A DNA stretch of 42,000 bases. Source: Bernardetia sp. Its GTDB lineage: Bacteria > Bacteroidota > Bacteroidia > Cytophagales > Bernardetiaceae. The position numbers and the translations under genes are program-made. A model generated the notes under the pieces. That model was not told the DNA's origin. It ran no database searches and worked only from the letters and a program-made list of their open reading frames with translations. Of this stretch, positions 6,527 through 42,000 are shown in pieces (the first letter of the stretch is position 1; every line of letters starts with the position of its first letter). The stretch covers positions 1-42,000 of the forward strand of contig NZ_JAHDIG010000041.1 in NCBI RefSeq assembly GCF_020630935.1, read 5' to 3'.

Positions 6527-6635
6527 TAAAGTACTGAACACAAAGAAATTTGCTGTTCTGTGAGCAAAAAACACTGTTCATTGCTGTTTTAGCATAGCGA
6601 CACCAACAACTTTTTATCTCATGTTCAATACTCTA
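6527..6635 (-). mobile_element. MITE-like structured element, copy 1 (109 bp)
   Basis: Read on the minus strand this is nearly identical over its first 50 bases to the element at 40641-40763, and it ends with a diverged form of the same terminal inverted repeat (TAGAGTATTGAACATGA at one end, TAAAGTACTGAACA facing it at the other). Compared with that copy it has lost about 14 bases, including the left arm of the small internal hairpin (CCCTGTTCTGTG). The 9 bases on each side do not match, so any target duplication has decayed. It sits 43 bases upstream of the rhodanese start and could supply or disturb its promoter. Confidence 0.8.
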
Positions 6636-19956: not shown

Positions 19957-20011
19957 TTTAGAACCTGTTTAAATTTCTGATAGTAAAACAAAAATTTAAA
20001 CAGGTTCTAAA
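19957..20011. repeat. Perfect 20-bp inverted repeat after the hydrolase operon
   Basis: TTTAGAACCTGTTTAAATTT (19957-19976) is perfectly inverted at 19992-20011 with a 15-base loop. It begins 11 bases beyond the stop of the CMD-hydrolase gene. No U-run follows, so it is a possible terminator, attenuator or remnant of a short mobile element. Confidence 0.7.
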
Positions 20012-26558: not shown

Positions 26559-26627
26559 TAGAGTACTGGACACGAGATGAAAAGTTGTTGATGTCGCTTT
26601 GCTAAAATATCAAAAATGGTAGAAAAA
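26559..26627 (+). mobile_element. MITE-like element, decayed copy
   Basis: TAGAGTACTGGACACGAGAT (26559-26578) and the following GTTGTTGATGTCGCTTTGCTAAAA match the left half of the 40641-40763 element with few changes. The right half is not recognisable; the following stretch (26630-26660) instead resembles part of the piece at 32960-32985. It lies downstream of the membrane-protein gene that begins at 27354. Confidence 0.65.
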
Positions 26628-28920: not shown

Positions 28921-28945
28921 TTTTGTAGTTGTATTTGTTTATGTA

Positions 28946-29028
28946 ATTGTCTGACACCTATGAAGGTGTACTGACAATCTAAAATTTTGTTTGAACTGTC
29001 AGACACTTTCAGAAGTGTCAGACAGTTC
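28946..29028. repeat. REP pair between metH and the RAYT gene
   Basis: Two palindromes: 28946-28978 (ATTGTCTGACACCT, loop, AGGTGTACTGACAAT) and 28993-29028, which repeats the 28173 unit in full and extends it to GAACTGTC...GACAGTTC. The second ends 11 bases before the metH stop, so it may also act as the metH 3' hairpin. Confidence 0.85.
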
Positions 29029-37971: not shown

Positions 37972-39288
37972 ATGAAGTTAGATTTTTCTAACTTTGTAAT
38001 TATGGATAAAATAATAGATTTCTTATTGCTCACAGAGCCAAATACACGTTATGTAGTTTTGGGTTCGATACTTTTAGGAGCGAGTTCAGCAATTGTAGGC
38101 TGTTTTACATTTTTGCAAAAACGTGCTTTGGTGGGTGATGCTGTGGCACATTCGGTTTTACCAGGTGTTTGTGGTGCTTTCTTAATGGCTGGAACTAAAA
38201 ATCCTTTGTTTTTGATTTTAGGGGCTTTTGTTTCAGGTTGGCTTTCGATTATCTGTATGAATCTTATTACAAAATACAGTAAGCTCAAAGAAGATACGGC
38301 TGTTGCGCTGATTTTGTCTGTTTTTTTTGGTTTTGGCGTGATGCTTCTTACTTATATTCAACAGTCTGGAAATGCTGCACAATCTGGCTTAGAGGGATTT
38401 TTGTTTGGAAAAGCTGCCGCTCTTGTGGGTAGCGATGTTTGGGTTTTTGGAGGGTTAGCTGCCTTAATGCTAGTTTTGGTTGGACTTTTTTACAAAGAAT
38501 TTATTATCGTCATTTTTCACAAAAGTTTTGCTCAAACAATAGGACTTCCTATTACTGCAATTGAAATTTTACTCACTACACTTACCGTTTTGGCTGTCGT
38601 GGTAGGGATTCAGTCTGTGGGGGTAGTTCTGATGGCTGCTATGCTAGTTACACCTGCTGCTGCTGCTCGTTTTTGGACAGACAAATTACACAAAATGCTA
38701 TTTATTGCAGCCAGTTTTGGAGCGTTGGCTGCTATTGGAGGCGCTTTTGTTTCATATATCCAAACACAAATGCCAACAGGACCTTGGATTGTTTTGGTAG
38801 CTTCTGCAATCGCAATGTTTTCATTTTTCTTTGCACCCAAAAAAGGAATTGTGGCACGACGAAGACGACAATATCTGTACAAAAAACAGATTTTGGAAGA
38901 GAATATTTTGAAAGCAATATATCATGATATAGAAAGAAGTTCTACTCAAAAAACTATCTCATCTTTAGAAGATATTGGCATACAAAGGCAATTCAAAACT
39001 GTTCTTTTGAAAAAAGCATTAAAAAAACTCACAAAAAAGCAACTCATCGAACAAGTAGAAAGGGGTTGGAGACTAACAGAAAAAGGTAACACAAAAGCTA
39101 GAAGACTTGTAAAACTACATCGTCTGTGGGAATTATATTTGACAGAGTTTGTGCGCCTTGCACCAGACCACGTACACGAAGCAGCCGAAGCCTTAGAACA
39201 TATCTTAACGCCAGAAATAGAAGCACAATTAGAAGCCAACCTAAAATATCCACAAAAAGACCCTCACGATAGCGATATTCCATACTGA
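37972..39288 (+). CDS. Metal ABC transporter permease fused to DtxR/MntR-like domain
   Basis: The frame opens with MKLDFSNFVI, but the second ATG (38002, MDKIIDFLL) may be used. Residues 11-290 are a ZnuB/TroC/MntB-type permease with eight or nine helices; GDAVAHSVLPGVC is the family's signature. After a basic linker (RRRR, 296-299) residues 305-438 form an iron-dependent repressor domain with winged helix and dimerisation helices. Metal ligands align: H383, E387, H402, E406, E409 and H410. The Glu at 406 replaces the DtxR Cys102 and is what MntR has, suggesting Mn(II) sensing. No ATPase or substrate-binding gene is adjacent. Permease-repressor fusions of this kind occur in some Bacteroidota (knowledge, not checked). 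Confidence 0.9.
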   Translation: MKLDFSNFVIMDKIIDFLLLTEPNTRYVVLGSILLGASSAIVGCFTFLQKRALVGDAVAHSVLPGVCGAFLMAGTKNPLFLILGAFVSGWLSIICMNLITKYSKLKEDTAVALILSVFFGFGVMLLTYIQQSGNAAQSGLEGFLFGKAAALVGSDVWVFGGLAALMLVLVGLFYKEFIIVIFHKSFAQTIGLPITAIEILLTTLTVLAVVVGIQSVGVVLMAAMLVTPAAAARFWTDKLHKMLFIAASFGALAAIGGAFVSYIQTQMPTGPWIVLVASAIAMFSFFFAPKKGIVARRRRQYLYKKQILEENILKAIYHDIERSSTQKTISSLEDIGIQRQFKTVLLKKALKKLTKKQLIEQVERGWRLTEKGNTKARRLVKLHRLWELYLTEFVRLAPDHVHEAAEALEHILTPEIEAQLEANLKYPQKDPHDSDIPY

Positions 39289-39344
39289 TTATTTTGTAAG
39301 AGATAATGCATGTGTTATCTCTACTTTGCAAAATATCTTCAATA

Positions 39345-39379
39345 AAAAAACTGACTACTTTTTTAGCAGTCAGTTTTTT
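39345..39379. terminator. Bidirectional terminator
   Basis: AAAAAACTGACT (39345-39356) and AGTCAGTTTTTT (39368-39379) pair perfectly and give T-runs on both strands, between two convergent genes. Confidence 0.85.
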
Positions 39380-39407
39380 GTAAGGAAATATGAAATTTAA
39401 TTATCCA

Positions 39408-40520
39408 TTAACGAAGTATGGCTGCAATTTCTTCTTTTCCACCCATTACAGTCTCGGCATCGTCTATAAACACTTTACCACCGTTTTTGAGCGTATAATA
39501 GGCAGCTTCATTATAAAGACATTCGTCGCCTCTATTGGTTCTGACTTTGTAATTTTCTTTGTCAAACTCTCCCCAACGGTGTCCATTACCAACAAAGAGC
39601 GTATCTATTCGTCCTTCATAAGCAGCTTCTACTACATCGGCAATTTCTGAAACTGTTTGACTCTGACTAGAGTTGTATTCTTCTACTTTTTTGTTTCTAT
39701 TTTCTGAAAAACGAAGTCGCATAGTAGGATGTACAGCATCAAAAATTTCTTTTTCCGAACTCTCATCAAAGTTTTTAGTAAACTGGTGTGCAATTAGGTT
39801 CGGATATGTATTTGCATCTTCATAAATGGCGTGCATTCTCTCATAACCTACCAAAACTAAAGGCACATAACTACCTCCTGTATTGATTGCAGGACGGATA
39901 GCTTCATCTATTTTTCTAAAAAACTCAAAGACAAATTCTTTTTCTCGGTCTTCTATTGGTGCGCTGGCGTGTGTTACGCTGCTATTATTGGGACGGCTTT
40001 GAGGTTCTTTTTCCACATCGTAATACTTTGTTACTTCGCTAATATCTTTTGGCATATCACAAGCCACCCTAGAAATACCACCATTAGCTACCATAAATAA
40101 GATAGGTTTTTCTTGAGAAAGACGCAAGATGTAATACATGTTGTCGTTGTCTTCCATCTGTCTCATGAGTTCCTTTACGTGCATACGACCATTGACAACA
40201 TTGTGTGCTTCTACTTCGTAAGGAATAGAAACTGTTTTGAAAAAGTTATCTCCTAAAAAGATTCCTAATCCTTGTTTTTGGTTTGACCAAAAAGTTCTAT
40301 CATCTAAAAGGTTGCGAACAGGCTTTAAATACTCATTAATTTCGTTTTCTAAAAGACCTTTTCTTTGAAGTTTGCCTTCAACTTCTTTAATTTGATTCTT
40401 CAAATTTAGTCTATCGTGTCCTTCCTTCACTTGATGTCCTTTCTGATGTGTAGGAATATAAATACTGATACAATGTTCAGATTTTTTTGAGGCGAGTTCT
40501 ATTATTTCGTTGCGATTCAT
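39408..40520 (-). CDS. Archaeo-eukaryotic release-factor-like domain protein (baeRF)
   Basis: The 370-residue cytoplasmic protein shows the bacterial baeRF family pattern: SIYIPTHQKGHQ, LGIFLGDNFFKTV, YYILRLSQEKPILFMVANGG and, near the C terminus, RIDTLFVGNGHRWGEFD and NEAAYYTLKNGGKVFI. The family is homologous to eRF1/Pelota but is thought to act in RNA metabolism or stress response; its activity is unproven. It is monocistronic, with a perfect terminator after it. Confidence 0.8.
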   Translation of the reverse strand: MNRNEIIELASKKSEHCISIYIPTHQKGHQVKEGHDRLNLKNQIKEVEGKLQRKGLLENEINEYLKPVRNLLDDRTFWSNQKQGLGIFLGDNFFKTVSIPYEVEAHNVVNGRMHVKELMRQMEDNDNMYYILRLSQEKPILFMVANGGISRVACDMPKDISEVTKYYDVEKEPQSRPNNSSVTHASAPIEDREKEFVFEFFRKIDEAIRPAINTGGSYVPLVLVGYERMHAIYEDANTYPNLIAHQFTKNFDESSEKEIFDAVHPTMRLRFSENRNKKVEEYNSSQSQTVSEIADVVEAAYEGRIDTLFVGNGHRWGEFDKENYKVRTNRGDECLYNEAAYYTLKNGGKVFIDDAETVMGGKEEIAAILR

Positions 40521-40631
40521 ATCTTGTAAAAAATTAAGGTTAAAAAATGATTGTCAATGTGTTTTTATTGACTAAACTATACTATTAATAACATAAAAAC
40601 TGCTTAAATGTTTAATAAAATAGGCATATAG

Positions 40632-40772
40632 CACTGTTTATAGAGTACTGGACATGAGATAAAAAGTTGTTGGTGTCGCTATGCTAAAACACCAACGAAC
40701 GGTATTTTTTCCCTGTTCTGTGGCTCACAGAACAGCAAATATCTGTTCATGTCCAGTACTCTACACTGTTTA
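40632..40772. repeat. 9-bp target site duplication around a MITE-like element
   Basis: The nonamer CACTGTTTA occurs at 40632-40640 and again at 40764-40772, exactly bounding the element at 40641-40763. Confidence 0.85.
40641..40763 (+). mobile_element. MITE-like structured element, copy 2 (123 bp, intact)
   Basis: Perfect 17-bp terminal inverted repeats, TAGAGTACTGGACATGA and TCATGTCCAGTACTCTA, enclose two hairpins: GTTGGTGT/ACACCAAC (40669-40676/40689-40696) and CTGTTCTGTG/CACAGAACAG (40713-40722/40726-40735). The whole would fold as a three-way junction. A 9-bp direct repeat flanks it. It contains no reading frame and needs a transposase in trans. It lies upstream of the divergent baeRF and DUF4126 genes. 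Confidence 0.88.
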
Positions 40773-40811
40773 ATAAAGTAACTTACAACCTATCAAAACC
40801 AAATTTATCTT

Positions 40812-41996
40812 ATGTCATTAGCAGTCTTATTACATGCCATTGGTACGATTCCACTTTTTGCGTCTCGTGCTTTTCTACCTGCTTTCCTTACTTCCTTACT
40901 TTTTCGATTTCCAAATTTGTTTCCTTTTACAGAAGTGGATGCCCCATCGGCTGAACTCTTTATTACCAAAACTCCAGTTATCATTGTGTTAGGTATTTTG
41001 GCAGTTTTGGAGATTTTGGCAGATAAAAACACAGATATAAAAGCAATATGGCTACAAGGAGAACCTTTTTTAAAGCCTCTGATTTATGCGATTATGCTTT
41101 TGGGAGTAGTGGATAATGATTCGGAAGCAATTATGCAGGGAATTTATATGCAGGCTGGAATGGGAGATTACATAATGATTTTCTTTACAGCTGGTGCTGT
41201 ATATGGACTAACTGTGCTGAGAGCTTCCATACAACAGTGGCTTTTAGAAGTTGATAGTGATGGTAGTCTTTTCCTTCATTATATTTTTTCTAGCATTGAA
41301 GATACGTTTGTCTTTTTTGGATTTCTATGGCTTATGATAAGTGGTGTTTCTGCTATTATCTTTTTTGCGATAGTAGTAGGTATTTTATATTTATGGCAAC
41401 AAAAAATTAAAGCTAATGAAGAAAAGCAAAAGGTAACTTGTTTTTCTTGTAATCATAAAAACTCTCCTTTTGCCTTGGAATGTAGCAACTGTCATACGCC
41501 ACAAGATAAAGTCTATAAAATAGGTTTCTTGGGTCAGAAAAAAGATACACAAATAGATAAAGAAACAAGTGATAGAAAAAAACATGCACTTACTCTACTC
41601 TCACAAGAACGCTGTGGATTTTGTGCTACCAAAACAAGTAAAAAAACGTGTCCTGCTTGTAAAAAAGAGCATATTTTGAACAGTTCAGAAAATAGAAAGG
41701 CTTATGTGATGTTTGTCCAAAAACGCTATGCCATGTGGCTTCCTCTAAGTATCGCACTTGGGTTTATTCCAATTGTAGGTATTGCTATTGCTGTTATGGG
41801 AGCTAATTTATATGTTTTTGCTCCTCTTAAAAGGCAGATTCCGACAGTAAAAGCAGTTGGTGTTCAGATTCTGACCAAGTTACTTATCTTTCTTGTGATA
41901 TTTTTTGGTTCGATTGCAGGGTTTGTTGTAGCTCCTCTTTATTGTTCGATACGATTTTTTGTTTGGAGAACGGCTTTTGTGAAGCATTGGAAGTGA
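40812..41996 (+). CDS. DUF4126 membrane protein with two zinc-ribbon segments
   Basis: The 394-residue product begins with the DUF4126 family pattern (AIGTIPLFASRAFLPAFL, then VIIVLGILAVLEILADKNTD) and about five membrane helices up to residue 195. A soluble insert follows with two Cys clusters: CFSCNHKNSPFALECSNC (near 212-229) and CGFCATKTSKKTCPAC (near 272-287), each fit for one zinc. At least one more helix pair (305-395) ends it. Function unknown. The stop at 41994-41996 lies four bases from the window edge. Confidence 0.75.
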   Translation: MSLAVLLHAIGTIPLFASRAFLPAFLTSLLFRFPNLFPFTEVDAPSAELFITKTPVIIVLGILAVLEILADKNTDIKAIWLQGEPFLKPLIYAIMLLGVVDNDSEAIMQGIYMQAGMGDYIMIFFTAGAVYGLTVLRASIQQWLLEVDSDGSLFLHYIFSSIEDTFVFFGFLWLMISGVSAIIFFAIVVGILYLWQQKIKANEEKQKVTCFSCNHKNSPFALECSNCHTPQDKVYKIGFLGQKKDTQIDKETSDRKKHALTLLSQERCGFCATKTSKKTCPACKKEHILNSSENRKAYVMFVQKRYAMWLPLSIALGFIPIVGIAIAVMGANLYVFAPLKRQIPTVKAVGVQILTKLLIFLVIFFGSIAGFVVAPLYCSIRFFVWRTAFVKHWK

Positions 41997-42000
41997 GAAA

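What the first reader, a model, noticed from the sequence alone, without database searches (positions are those of the whole stretch)
40632..40772. New short mobile element with a perfect 9-bp target duplication and three-way fold
The 123-bp element has perfect 17-bp terminal inverted repeats, two internal hairpins and an exact CACTGTTTA duplication on both sides. It has no gene, so it must be moved in trans. Together with a second near-full copy it defines a family.
Basis: seen in the sequence. Interest (0 to 1): 0.7.

Follow-up and report, generated by a model that had tools for sequence, protein, structure and literature searches.

The report
Gene-less hairpin transposon in Bernardetia
This is one copy of a short gene-less jumping element that has spread through this bacterium's genome, very likely moved by the enzyme of a longer relative found in sister species; an ordinary kind of element, except that its internal hairpins also turn up inside jumping elements with unrelated ends.

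Summary
Window 40641-40763 is a 123-bp element with perfect 17-bp inverted ends, two internal hairpins and an exact 9-bp duplication. It is one of 75 full or partial copies found in fetched parts of the genome. Of 57 copies with both ends readable, 34 have an exact 9-bp duplication and 44 one within a single mismatch; mismatched flank pairs gave 0 of 3192 exact. Three sister species have the same neighbouring genes and no element between them. It is a MITE.

A likely mover was found in sister Bernardetia genomes: a 1208-bp IS4-family insertion sequence with ends TACAGTACTGGACATG (15 of 16 bases as here), 9-bp duplications and a 373-aa YREK transposase. It was not found in the window's own assembly (10.8 kb of which is withheld), so movement in trans is inferred.

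The three-way fold does not define the family: six of eight elements with the same ends but other interiors fold as one long arm, and I found no clear sign of selection on an RNA. Unexpectedly, both hairpins recur in the genus, alone and inside elements with unrelated ends, as if hairpins were portable parts. New member of a known kind.

The parts
40632..40640 (.). left target-site duplication CACTGTTTA
40641..40657 (+). left terminal inverted repeat, 17 nt
40666..40700 (+). hairpin 1 (GTTGTTGGTGT ... ACACCAACGAAC, one bulged G); its 28-nt core recurs across the genus outside this element
40713..40735 (+). hairpin 2 (CTGTTCTGTG GCT CACAGAACAG)
40747..40763 (-). right terminal inverted repeat, 17 nt
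40764..40772 (.). right target-site duplication CACTGTTTA
6527..6635 (-). second copy, 109 bp, both ends degenerate, no duplication, hairpin 2 partly deleted
26559..26619 (+). left-end fragment of the element (TIR plus a decayed hairpin 1)
39408..40520 (-). neighbouring gene, archaeo-eukaryotic release-factor-like protein (baeRF family 3/7)
40812..41996 (+). neighbouring gene, DUF4126-like protein (26.9 bits, just under the Pfam cut-off of 27.5); its start lies 48 bp after the element and it diverges from the other neighbour

Best explanation
A MITE: a non-autonomous element moved in trans by the DDE transposase of an IS4-family insertion sequence. The transposase binds the roughly 16-bp ends (core AGTACTGGACATG), cuts the element out and joins it to staggered cuts 9 bp apart in an A+T-rich target; repair makes the 9-bp duplication. 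Shown here: ends, duplications, copy number, empty orthologous sites, and an intact IS with near-identical ends and the same duplication length in sister species. Inferred: that this transposase subgroup, rather than another with the same ends, moved the copies in this genome, and the cut-and-paste chemistry (from established knowledge of the IS4 family; PMC2266710, passages).
For: 75 full or partial hits in the fetched parts of the genome; modal length 123 bp, in 24 of 57 copies. 34 of 57 copies carry an exact 9-bp duplication and 44 of 57 one with at most 1 mismatch; none has 6-8 or 10-12 bp as its exact repeat; control of the left flank of one copy against the right flank of another: 0 of 3192 exact, 5 of 3192 within 1 mismatch. 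Orthologous gene pair without the element in G005, G002 and G003. The C71 copy sits inside a dispersed palindrome and duplicates GCAAGCCTT. IS of 1208 bp with ends TACAGTACTGGACATG in G001-G003; 9-bp duplications at the 5 full-length G002 copies and the G003 copy; transposase PF01609 E 3.9e-16, best NCBIfam transpos_IS4_2 E 4.7e-34, YREK motif and D-64-D-102-E spacing. In 3 of 7 genomes with more distant relatives (G298, G212, G331) my search found ends with ...TRCTGGACAT.
Against: No matching transposase in the window's own assembly or in G004, the two genomes with the most end matches (none of 7 and of 12 candidates). Five contigs of the assembly (10,828 bases) are withheld and read N throughout, and contigs end inside repeats, so absence is weak evidence. 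The IS end differs from the MITE end at base 3 (C instead of G). Beyond the ends, by eye, the MITE shares only about 7 further bases with one IS end, so it is not a plain internal deletion of that IS. In 3 of 7 genomes with more distant relatives the search found no such ends, and 1 was too short to test. The two G001 copies of the IS have no duplication of their own (they share one between their outer ends).
Confidence: 0.88

Rival explanations
1. The element is mobile in its own right as a structured single strand or RNA (for example as a substrate of an HUH-type enzyme), or is kept for an RNA function, and the three-way fold is the point.
For: Strong predicted fold. 10 of 38 pairs show a change on both sides (shuffled mean 4.9, reached in 4 of 500 shuffles) and the covariation score is 0.075 (shuffled mean 0.065, reached in 0 of 500; slid versions 0.024-0.068). 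In helix 2 alone G-U changes outnumber A-C changes 25 to 10 (p 0.017, one of three helices tested).
Against: Exact 9-bp duplications point to a DDE enzyme. Over the three helices one-sided changes give 73 G-U and 61 A-C, little strand preference, as under neutral decay (the two innermost TIR pairs left out). A structure slid by -3 shows as many two-sided changes (11 pairs), and related sequences can beat shuffles without any structure. Six of eight elements with the same ends and other interiors fold as one long arm. No Rfam match.
Confidence: 0.05
2. A fossil family: the cognate IS has been lost from this species and no copy moves any more (compatible with the best explanation for its past).
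For: No transposase match in the assembly; median pairwise identity of 57 copies 86.8%, minimum 68.1%; several copies with decayed ends.
Against: The closest pair of copies is 99.2% identical and 34 of 57 duplications are still exact; five contigs are withheld; in a sister strain the IS is carried by a plasmid, so a source in trans could return.
Confidence: 0.4
3. The repeat is dispersed by recombination or is a fixed regulatory hairpin, not a mobile element.
For: Its two hairpins also occur without these ends in the genus.
Against: Target duplications of one exact length, and empty orthologous sites.
Confidence: 0.02

Closest known systems
IS4-family insertion sequences (IS10-like by size and duplication length)
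   Same: 1208-bp partner IS, single open frame, DDE with YREK motif, 9-bp direct repeats; PMC2266710 Table 1 gives 1200-1350 bp and 9 bp for subgroup IS10 (passages seen)
   Different: Ends begin TA (TACAG/TAGAG), not the CT given for subgroup IS10 or the CA/CAT given for IS4Sa, IS231 and ISH8 in that table; the NCBIfam IS4 models match below their cut-offs
IS-derived MITEs of Bacteroidota, e.g. MITECca01 of Cardinium (PMC9769881, passages seen)
   Same: Gene-less, high-copy, ends shared with an IS
   Different: That one is about 240 bp, from an IS982-family parent present in the same genome; here the likely parent family is IS4 and was found only in sister species
REP sequences (PMC3733652, passages seen)
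   Same: Hairpins 1 and 2 are short palindromes dispersed in the genome
   Different: GTAG or CGTC tags were not tested (interiors of the two folded G001 elements do contain CGTC near a stem) and no RAYT gene was looked for; inside this element the hairpins ride on IS ends with target duplications
Mosaic non-autonomous elements such as TIMEs (PMC4133298, search listing with title and start of abstract only)
   Same: By their title, miniature elements that generate mosaics
   Different: Tn3-derived by their title; not compared further

Membership tests
MITE | short, no coding capacity | tested here: met
   123 bp; no open frame of 60 aa or more overlaps it
MITE | terminal inverted repeats | tested here: met
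   17 nt perfect here; about 15 nt in the family
MITE | target-site duplication of constant length | tested here: met
   9 bp exact in 34 of 57, control 0 of 3192
MITE | dispersed multi-copy, with empty sites | tested here: met
   75 full or partial hits in fetched pieces; empty in G005, G002, G003
MITE | ends shared with an autonomous IS | tested here: met
   15 of 16 end bases shared with a 1208-bp IS in sister species; not found in the own assembly
MITE | moved by that IS's transposase | not testable with these tools
   needs a transposition assay
IS4 family (partner IS) | YREK motif Y(2)R(3)E(6)K and D(60-110)D(100-150)E | tested here: met
   YYLRWKIECLFKHLK; spacers 64 and 102; definition from PMC2266710 (passages)
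IS4 family (partner IS) | single-frame transposase and duplications of about one helix turn | tested here: met
   373 aa in one frame; 9 bp at the 5 full-length G002 copies and the G003 copy
IS4 family (partner IS) | scores over NCBIfam's curated IS4 cut-offs | tested here: not met
   best 118 bits against a cut-off of 152; over the PF01609 cut-off
IS4 subgroup IS10 | 5'-CT ends | tested here: not met
   ends are TACAG
REP sequence (hairpins 1 and 2) | short palindrome in many dispersed copies | tested here: met
   28 to 147 hairpin-1 sites per genus genome at up to 3 mismatches, 0 in reversed-pattern controls; whether they lie between genes was not counted
REP sequence (hairpins 1 and 2) | associated RAYT transposase | not tested

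The most novel reading that the evidence does not exclude
In Bernardetia a small stock of hairpins works as interchangeable cargo: the same hairpin sequences sit alone and inside elements with unrelated ends and different duplication lengths (TAGAGTACTGGACA, 9 bp; GAAGTTGTTTAAGAAT, 3 bp; perhaps CTGATGTTACGCA, 6-7 bp). They would be picked up repeatedly, either because the hairpins are mobile themselves (REP-like) or because hairpins protect the element or its host, for example as insulators.
Probability: 0.35. Interest if true: 0.6.

Novelty: new member of a known kind. Interest (0 to 1): 0.4.

Why it matters
It gives a clean candidate MITE-IS pair for an IS4-family subgroup in Bacteroidota, with ends, duplication length, empty sites and transposase in hand, so trans-mobilisation can be tested directly. 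The sharing of hairpins between elements with unrelated ends makes testable the question of how MITE interiors arise, which internal deletion of the IS found does not explain here.

Tried and rejected
Rejected: an autonomous IS sharing the first 56 bp (C103:9806-9906, C82:1-97). It looked like the parent, but C28:1-130 carries the same tail beside hairpin 1 without the inverted end, so the tail belongs to some other multi-copy sequence that starts beside the hairpin. Searching 7 genus genomes for the tail found only those three contig ends.

Led nowhere: PF01609 in G000 and G004 gave 5 matches, none with this end within 3 mismatches in the fetched flanks. Rfam at gathering threshold on window 39000-42000 gave nothing. 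Phage and plasmid records held nothing like the MITE at E 1e-5. No solved structure matched the transposase by sequence up to E 1. The readable small contigs C138-C148 held no copy of the tail. A paper on triplex repeats that names Flexibacter litoralis (PMC4666352, passages) did not bear on the element.

RNA-level selection was tested and not clearly supported. Dropped before the duplication count: of 75 hits, 15 were short at one model end and 3 had no recognisable end; 57 remained. An earlier count said 45 of 57 within one mismatch; the recount gives 44. Of the short elements with these ends and other interiors seen, three (L184, L185, L187) were not folded.

Literature: nine of ten searches used. 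By title, none listed a paper on MITEs or insertion sequences of Bernardetia; only open-licence PMC text is held, and long lists were shown in part.

Full report
What is there. Window 40641-40763 is a 123-bp element with perfectly complementary 17-nt ends, flanked on both sides by CACTGTTTA. Two hairpins fill the interior, and the single strand folds far better than shuffled sequence. No open frame of 60 aa or more overlaps it. It lies between two divergent genes, a baeRF-type release-factor-like protein and a DUF4126-like protein, 48 bp before the start of the second.

It is a family. The window lies in G000, a draft genome of 4.75 Mb in 153 contigs. A DNA search gave 41 matches there, a lower bound (161 candidates, 40 scored). 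In 85 fetched pieces (259,193 bases, nearly all picked because they held matches) nhmmer found 75 full or partial hits at E <= 1e-5. The whole-genome number was not counted directly; hairpin 2 has 98 places in G000 at up to 2 mismatches and hairpin 1 has 62 at up to 3, but not all of these lie inside the element.

It moves. Of 57 copies with both ends, 34 have an exact 9-bp duplication and 44 one within one mismatch; no copy has an exact repeat of 6-8 or 10-12 bp. Pairing the left flank of one copy with the right flank of another gave 0 of 3192 exact and 5 of 3192 within one mismatch. The duplicated sites are A+T-rich, with A commonest first and T last. One copy (C71) is inserted in a dispersed palindrome around AAGGCAAGCCTT, of which uninterrupted relatives exist (three hits in fetched loci, two of them the same place). 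At the window's own site, the DUF4126-like gene was found in 5 relatives and not in G006. In G005, G002 and G003 the start of the same baeRF-like gene lies beside it and the intergenic region has no element; in G004 and G001 the upstream sequence is unrelated. These intergenic regions have diverged, so the single uncut copy of CACTGTTTA cannot be pointed out.

What moves it. Searching the genus for the end (18 bases, up to 2 mismatches) gave 102 hits in G000 (reversed-pattern control 19), 85 in G004, and 11, 8, 6, 1 and 0 in G001, G002, G006, G003 and G005 (controls 0). Several of these in G001-G003 are ends of a 1208-bp insertion sequence, TACAGTACTGGACATG. Its five full-length G002 copies and the G003 copy have 9-bp duplications; the two G001 copies have none of their own. 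It codes for a 373-aa transposase: Pfam DDE_Tnp_1, E 3.9e-16; the best NCBIfam models are IS4-family, below their cut-offs; D-64-D-102-E and the YREK motif meet the published IS4 hallmarks (PMC2266710, passages). Size and 9-bp repeats fit subgroup IS10, the TA ends do not. In 390 genomes of the order, 10 matched at E <= 1e-40. Of the 7 outside the genus, G298, G212 and G331 have ends with TGGACAT at the corresponding place; for G179, G086 and G052 my inverted-repeat search found no such ends, and the G009 locus was too short to test. The transposase was not found in G000 or G004; five G000 contigs, 10,828 bases, are withheld.

Names. G003 contig 2 has the length of NZ_CP147021.1, a 35,014-base plasmid of Bernardetia sp. 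ABR2-2B, and carries the IS at the same place; so I take the genus as Bernardetia.

Is the fold functional? The alignment of 57 copies gives 91.9% standard pairs and slightly more covariation than shuffles (0.075 against a mean of 0.065, 0 of 500 as high); slid versions score 0.024-0.068, but one has as many two-sided changes. One-sided changes give G-U and A-C in similar numbers (73 and 61), which is what neutral decay of a DNA palindrome gives; helix 2 alone leans to G-U (25 and 10), nominal p 0.017 among three tests. Eight elements with the same ends and other interiors, six from G001, G002 and G006 and two from G000 (C9, C40), were folded with RNA parameters: six give one long arm (both G002 ones with a small side stem), while the 124-bp G006 element and C40 form separate hairpins. 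Of these eight, six have identical 9-bp flanks; the 124-bp G006 element and C40 do not. So I take the fold as a by-product of the hairpins.

The odd part. The 28-nt core of hairpin 1 occurs 28 to 147 times in each of the 7 genus genomes at up to 3 mismatches, 0 in reversed-pattern controls, including genomes with few or none of these ends. Of 37 distinct hairpin-1 loci classified (best matches fetched, not a random sample), 6 had both ends of this element, 11 both ends of a second type (GAAGTTGTTTAAGAAT), and 20 neither pair in full; half-matches there are loose and partly chance. The second type was paired at 11 distinct places, 49-176 bp long; 9 of 11 share 3 flanking bases, against 12 of 110 mismatched pairs, and 10 of the 11 contain hairpin 1. 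One of these, in G002 (locus L131), carries hairpin 1 and hairpin 2 together. A 931-bp IS with such ends and an IS4/5-type transposase is present in G000, without a clear duplication. Hairpin 2 too stands without these ends in G000: of 16 further hairpin-2 places fetched (picked from the part of the list outside known copies), seven showed neither this element's end, nor the second end, nor hairpin 1 (L274, L275, L276, L280, L283, L285, L286). A hairpin-2-like pair sits inside a third, 102-bp inverted-repeat element in G002. How the hairpins come to be shared is not known; the most novel reading is that they are portable parts.

Verdict. A real MITE family with a likely IS4-family partner: a new member of a known kind. 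The hairpin sharing raises it above routine.

Noticed in passing
L292 (G001:C1:84560-98175): Two inverted copies of the 1208-bp IS bound a 13.6-kb segment whose outer edges share the 9-bp repeat ATTCCCAAA, like a composite transposon; six open frames of 138 to 1547 aa between them have no Pfam match at E 1e-5.
   Followed up: partly
L131, L133, L137, L138, L151, L152, L154 and others: A second MITE-like family with ends GAAGTTGTTTAAGAAT that carries the same hairpin 1; 9 of 11 places share 3 flanking bases.
   Followed up: partly
L125:1085-2015 (G000:C20): A 931-bp IS with GAACTTGTTTAAGAAT / ATTCTTAAACAACTTC ends and an IS4/5-type transposase, a likely partner of that second family.
   Followed up: partly
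L290, L291 (G002): A 102-bp inverted-repeat element, ends CTGATGTTACGCA, with two hairpin-2-like hairpins and, by eye, 6-7-bp flanking repeats.
   Followed up: partly
G000:C103:9862-9906, C82:1-41, C28:1-41: An unidentified multi-copy sequence starts directly beside hairpin 1 at three contig ends, twice in this MITE and once at a hairpin without the MITE end, as if something inserts beside the hairpin.
   Followed up: partly
window 28939-29026: Two neighbouring hairpins (TGTCTGACACC..., CTGTCAGACACTTT...) resembling the interior of the C9, C40 and G002 elements, here with no inverted ends seen by eye.
   Followed up: no
window 19957-20011: 23-nt inverted repeat, 96% complementary, 9 nt apart.
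   Followed up: no
L293 (NZ_CP147021.1): The partner IS sits on a 35-kb plasmid in Bernardetia sp. ABR2-2B, a possible source of transposase between strains; PLSDB types the plasmid as non-mobilizable.
   Followed up: partly
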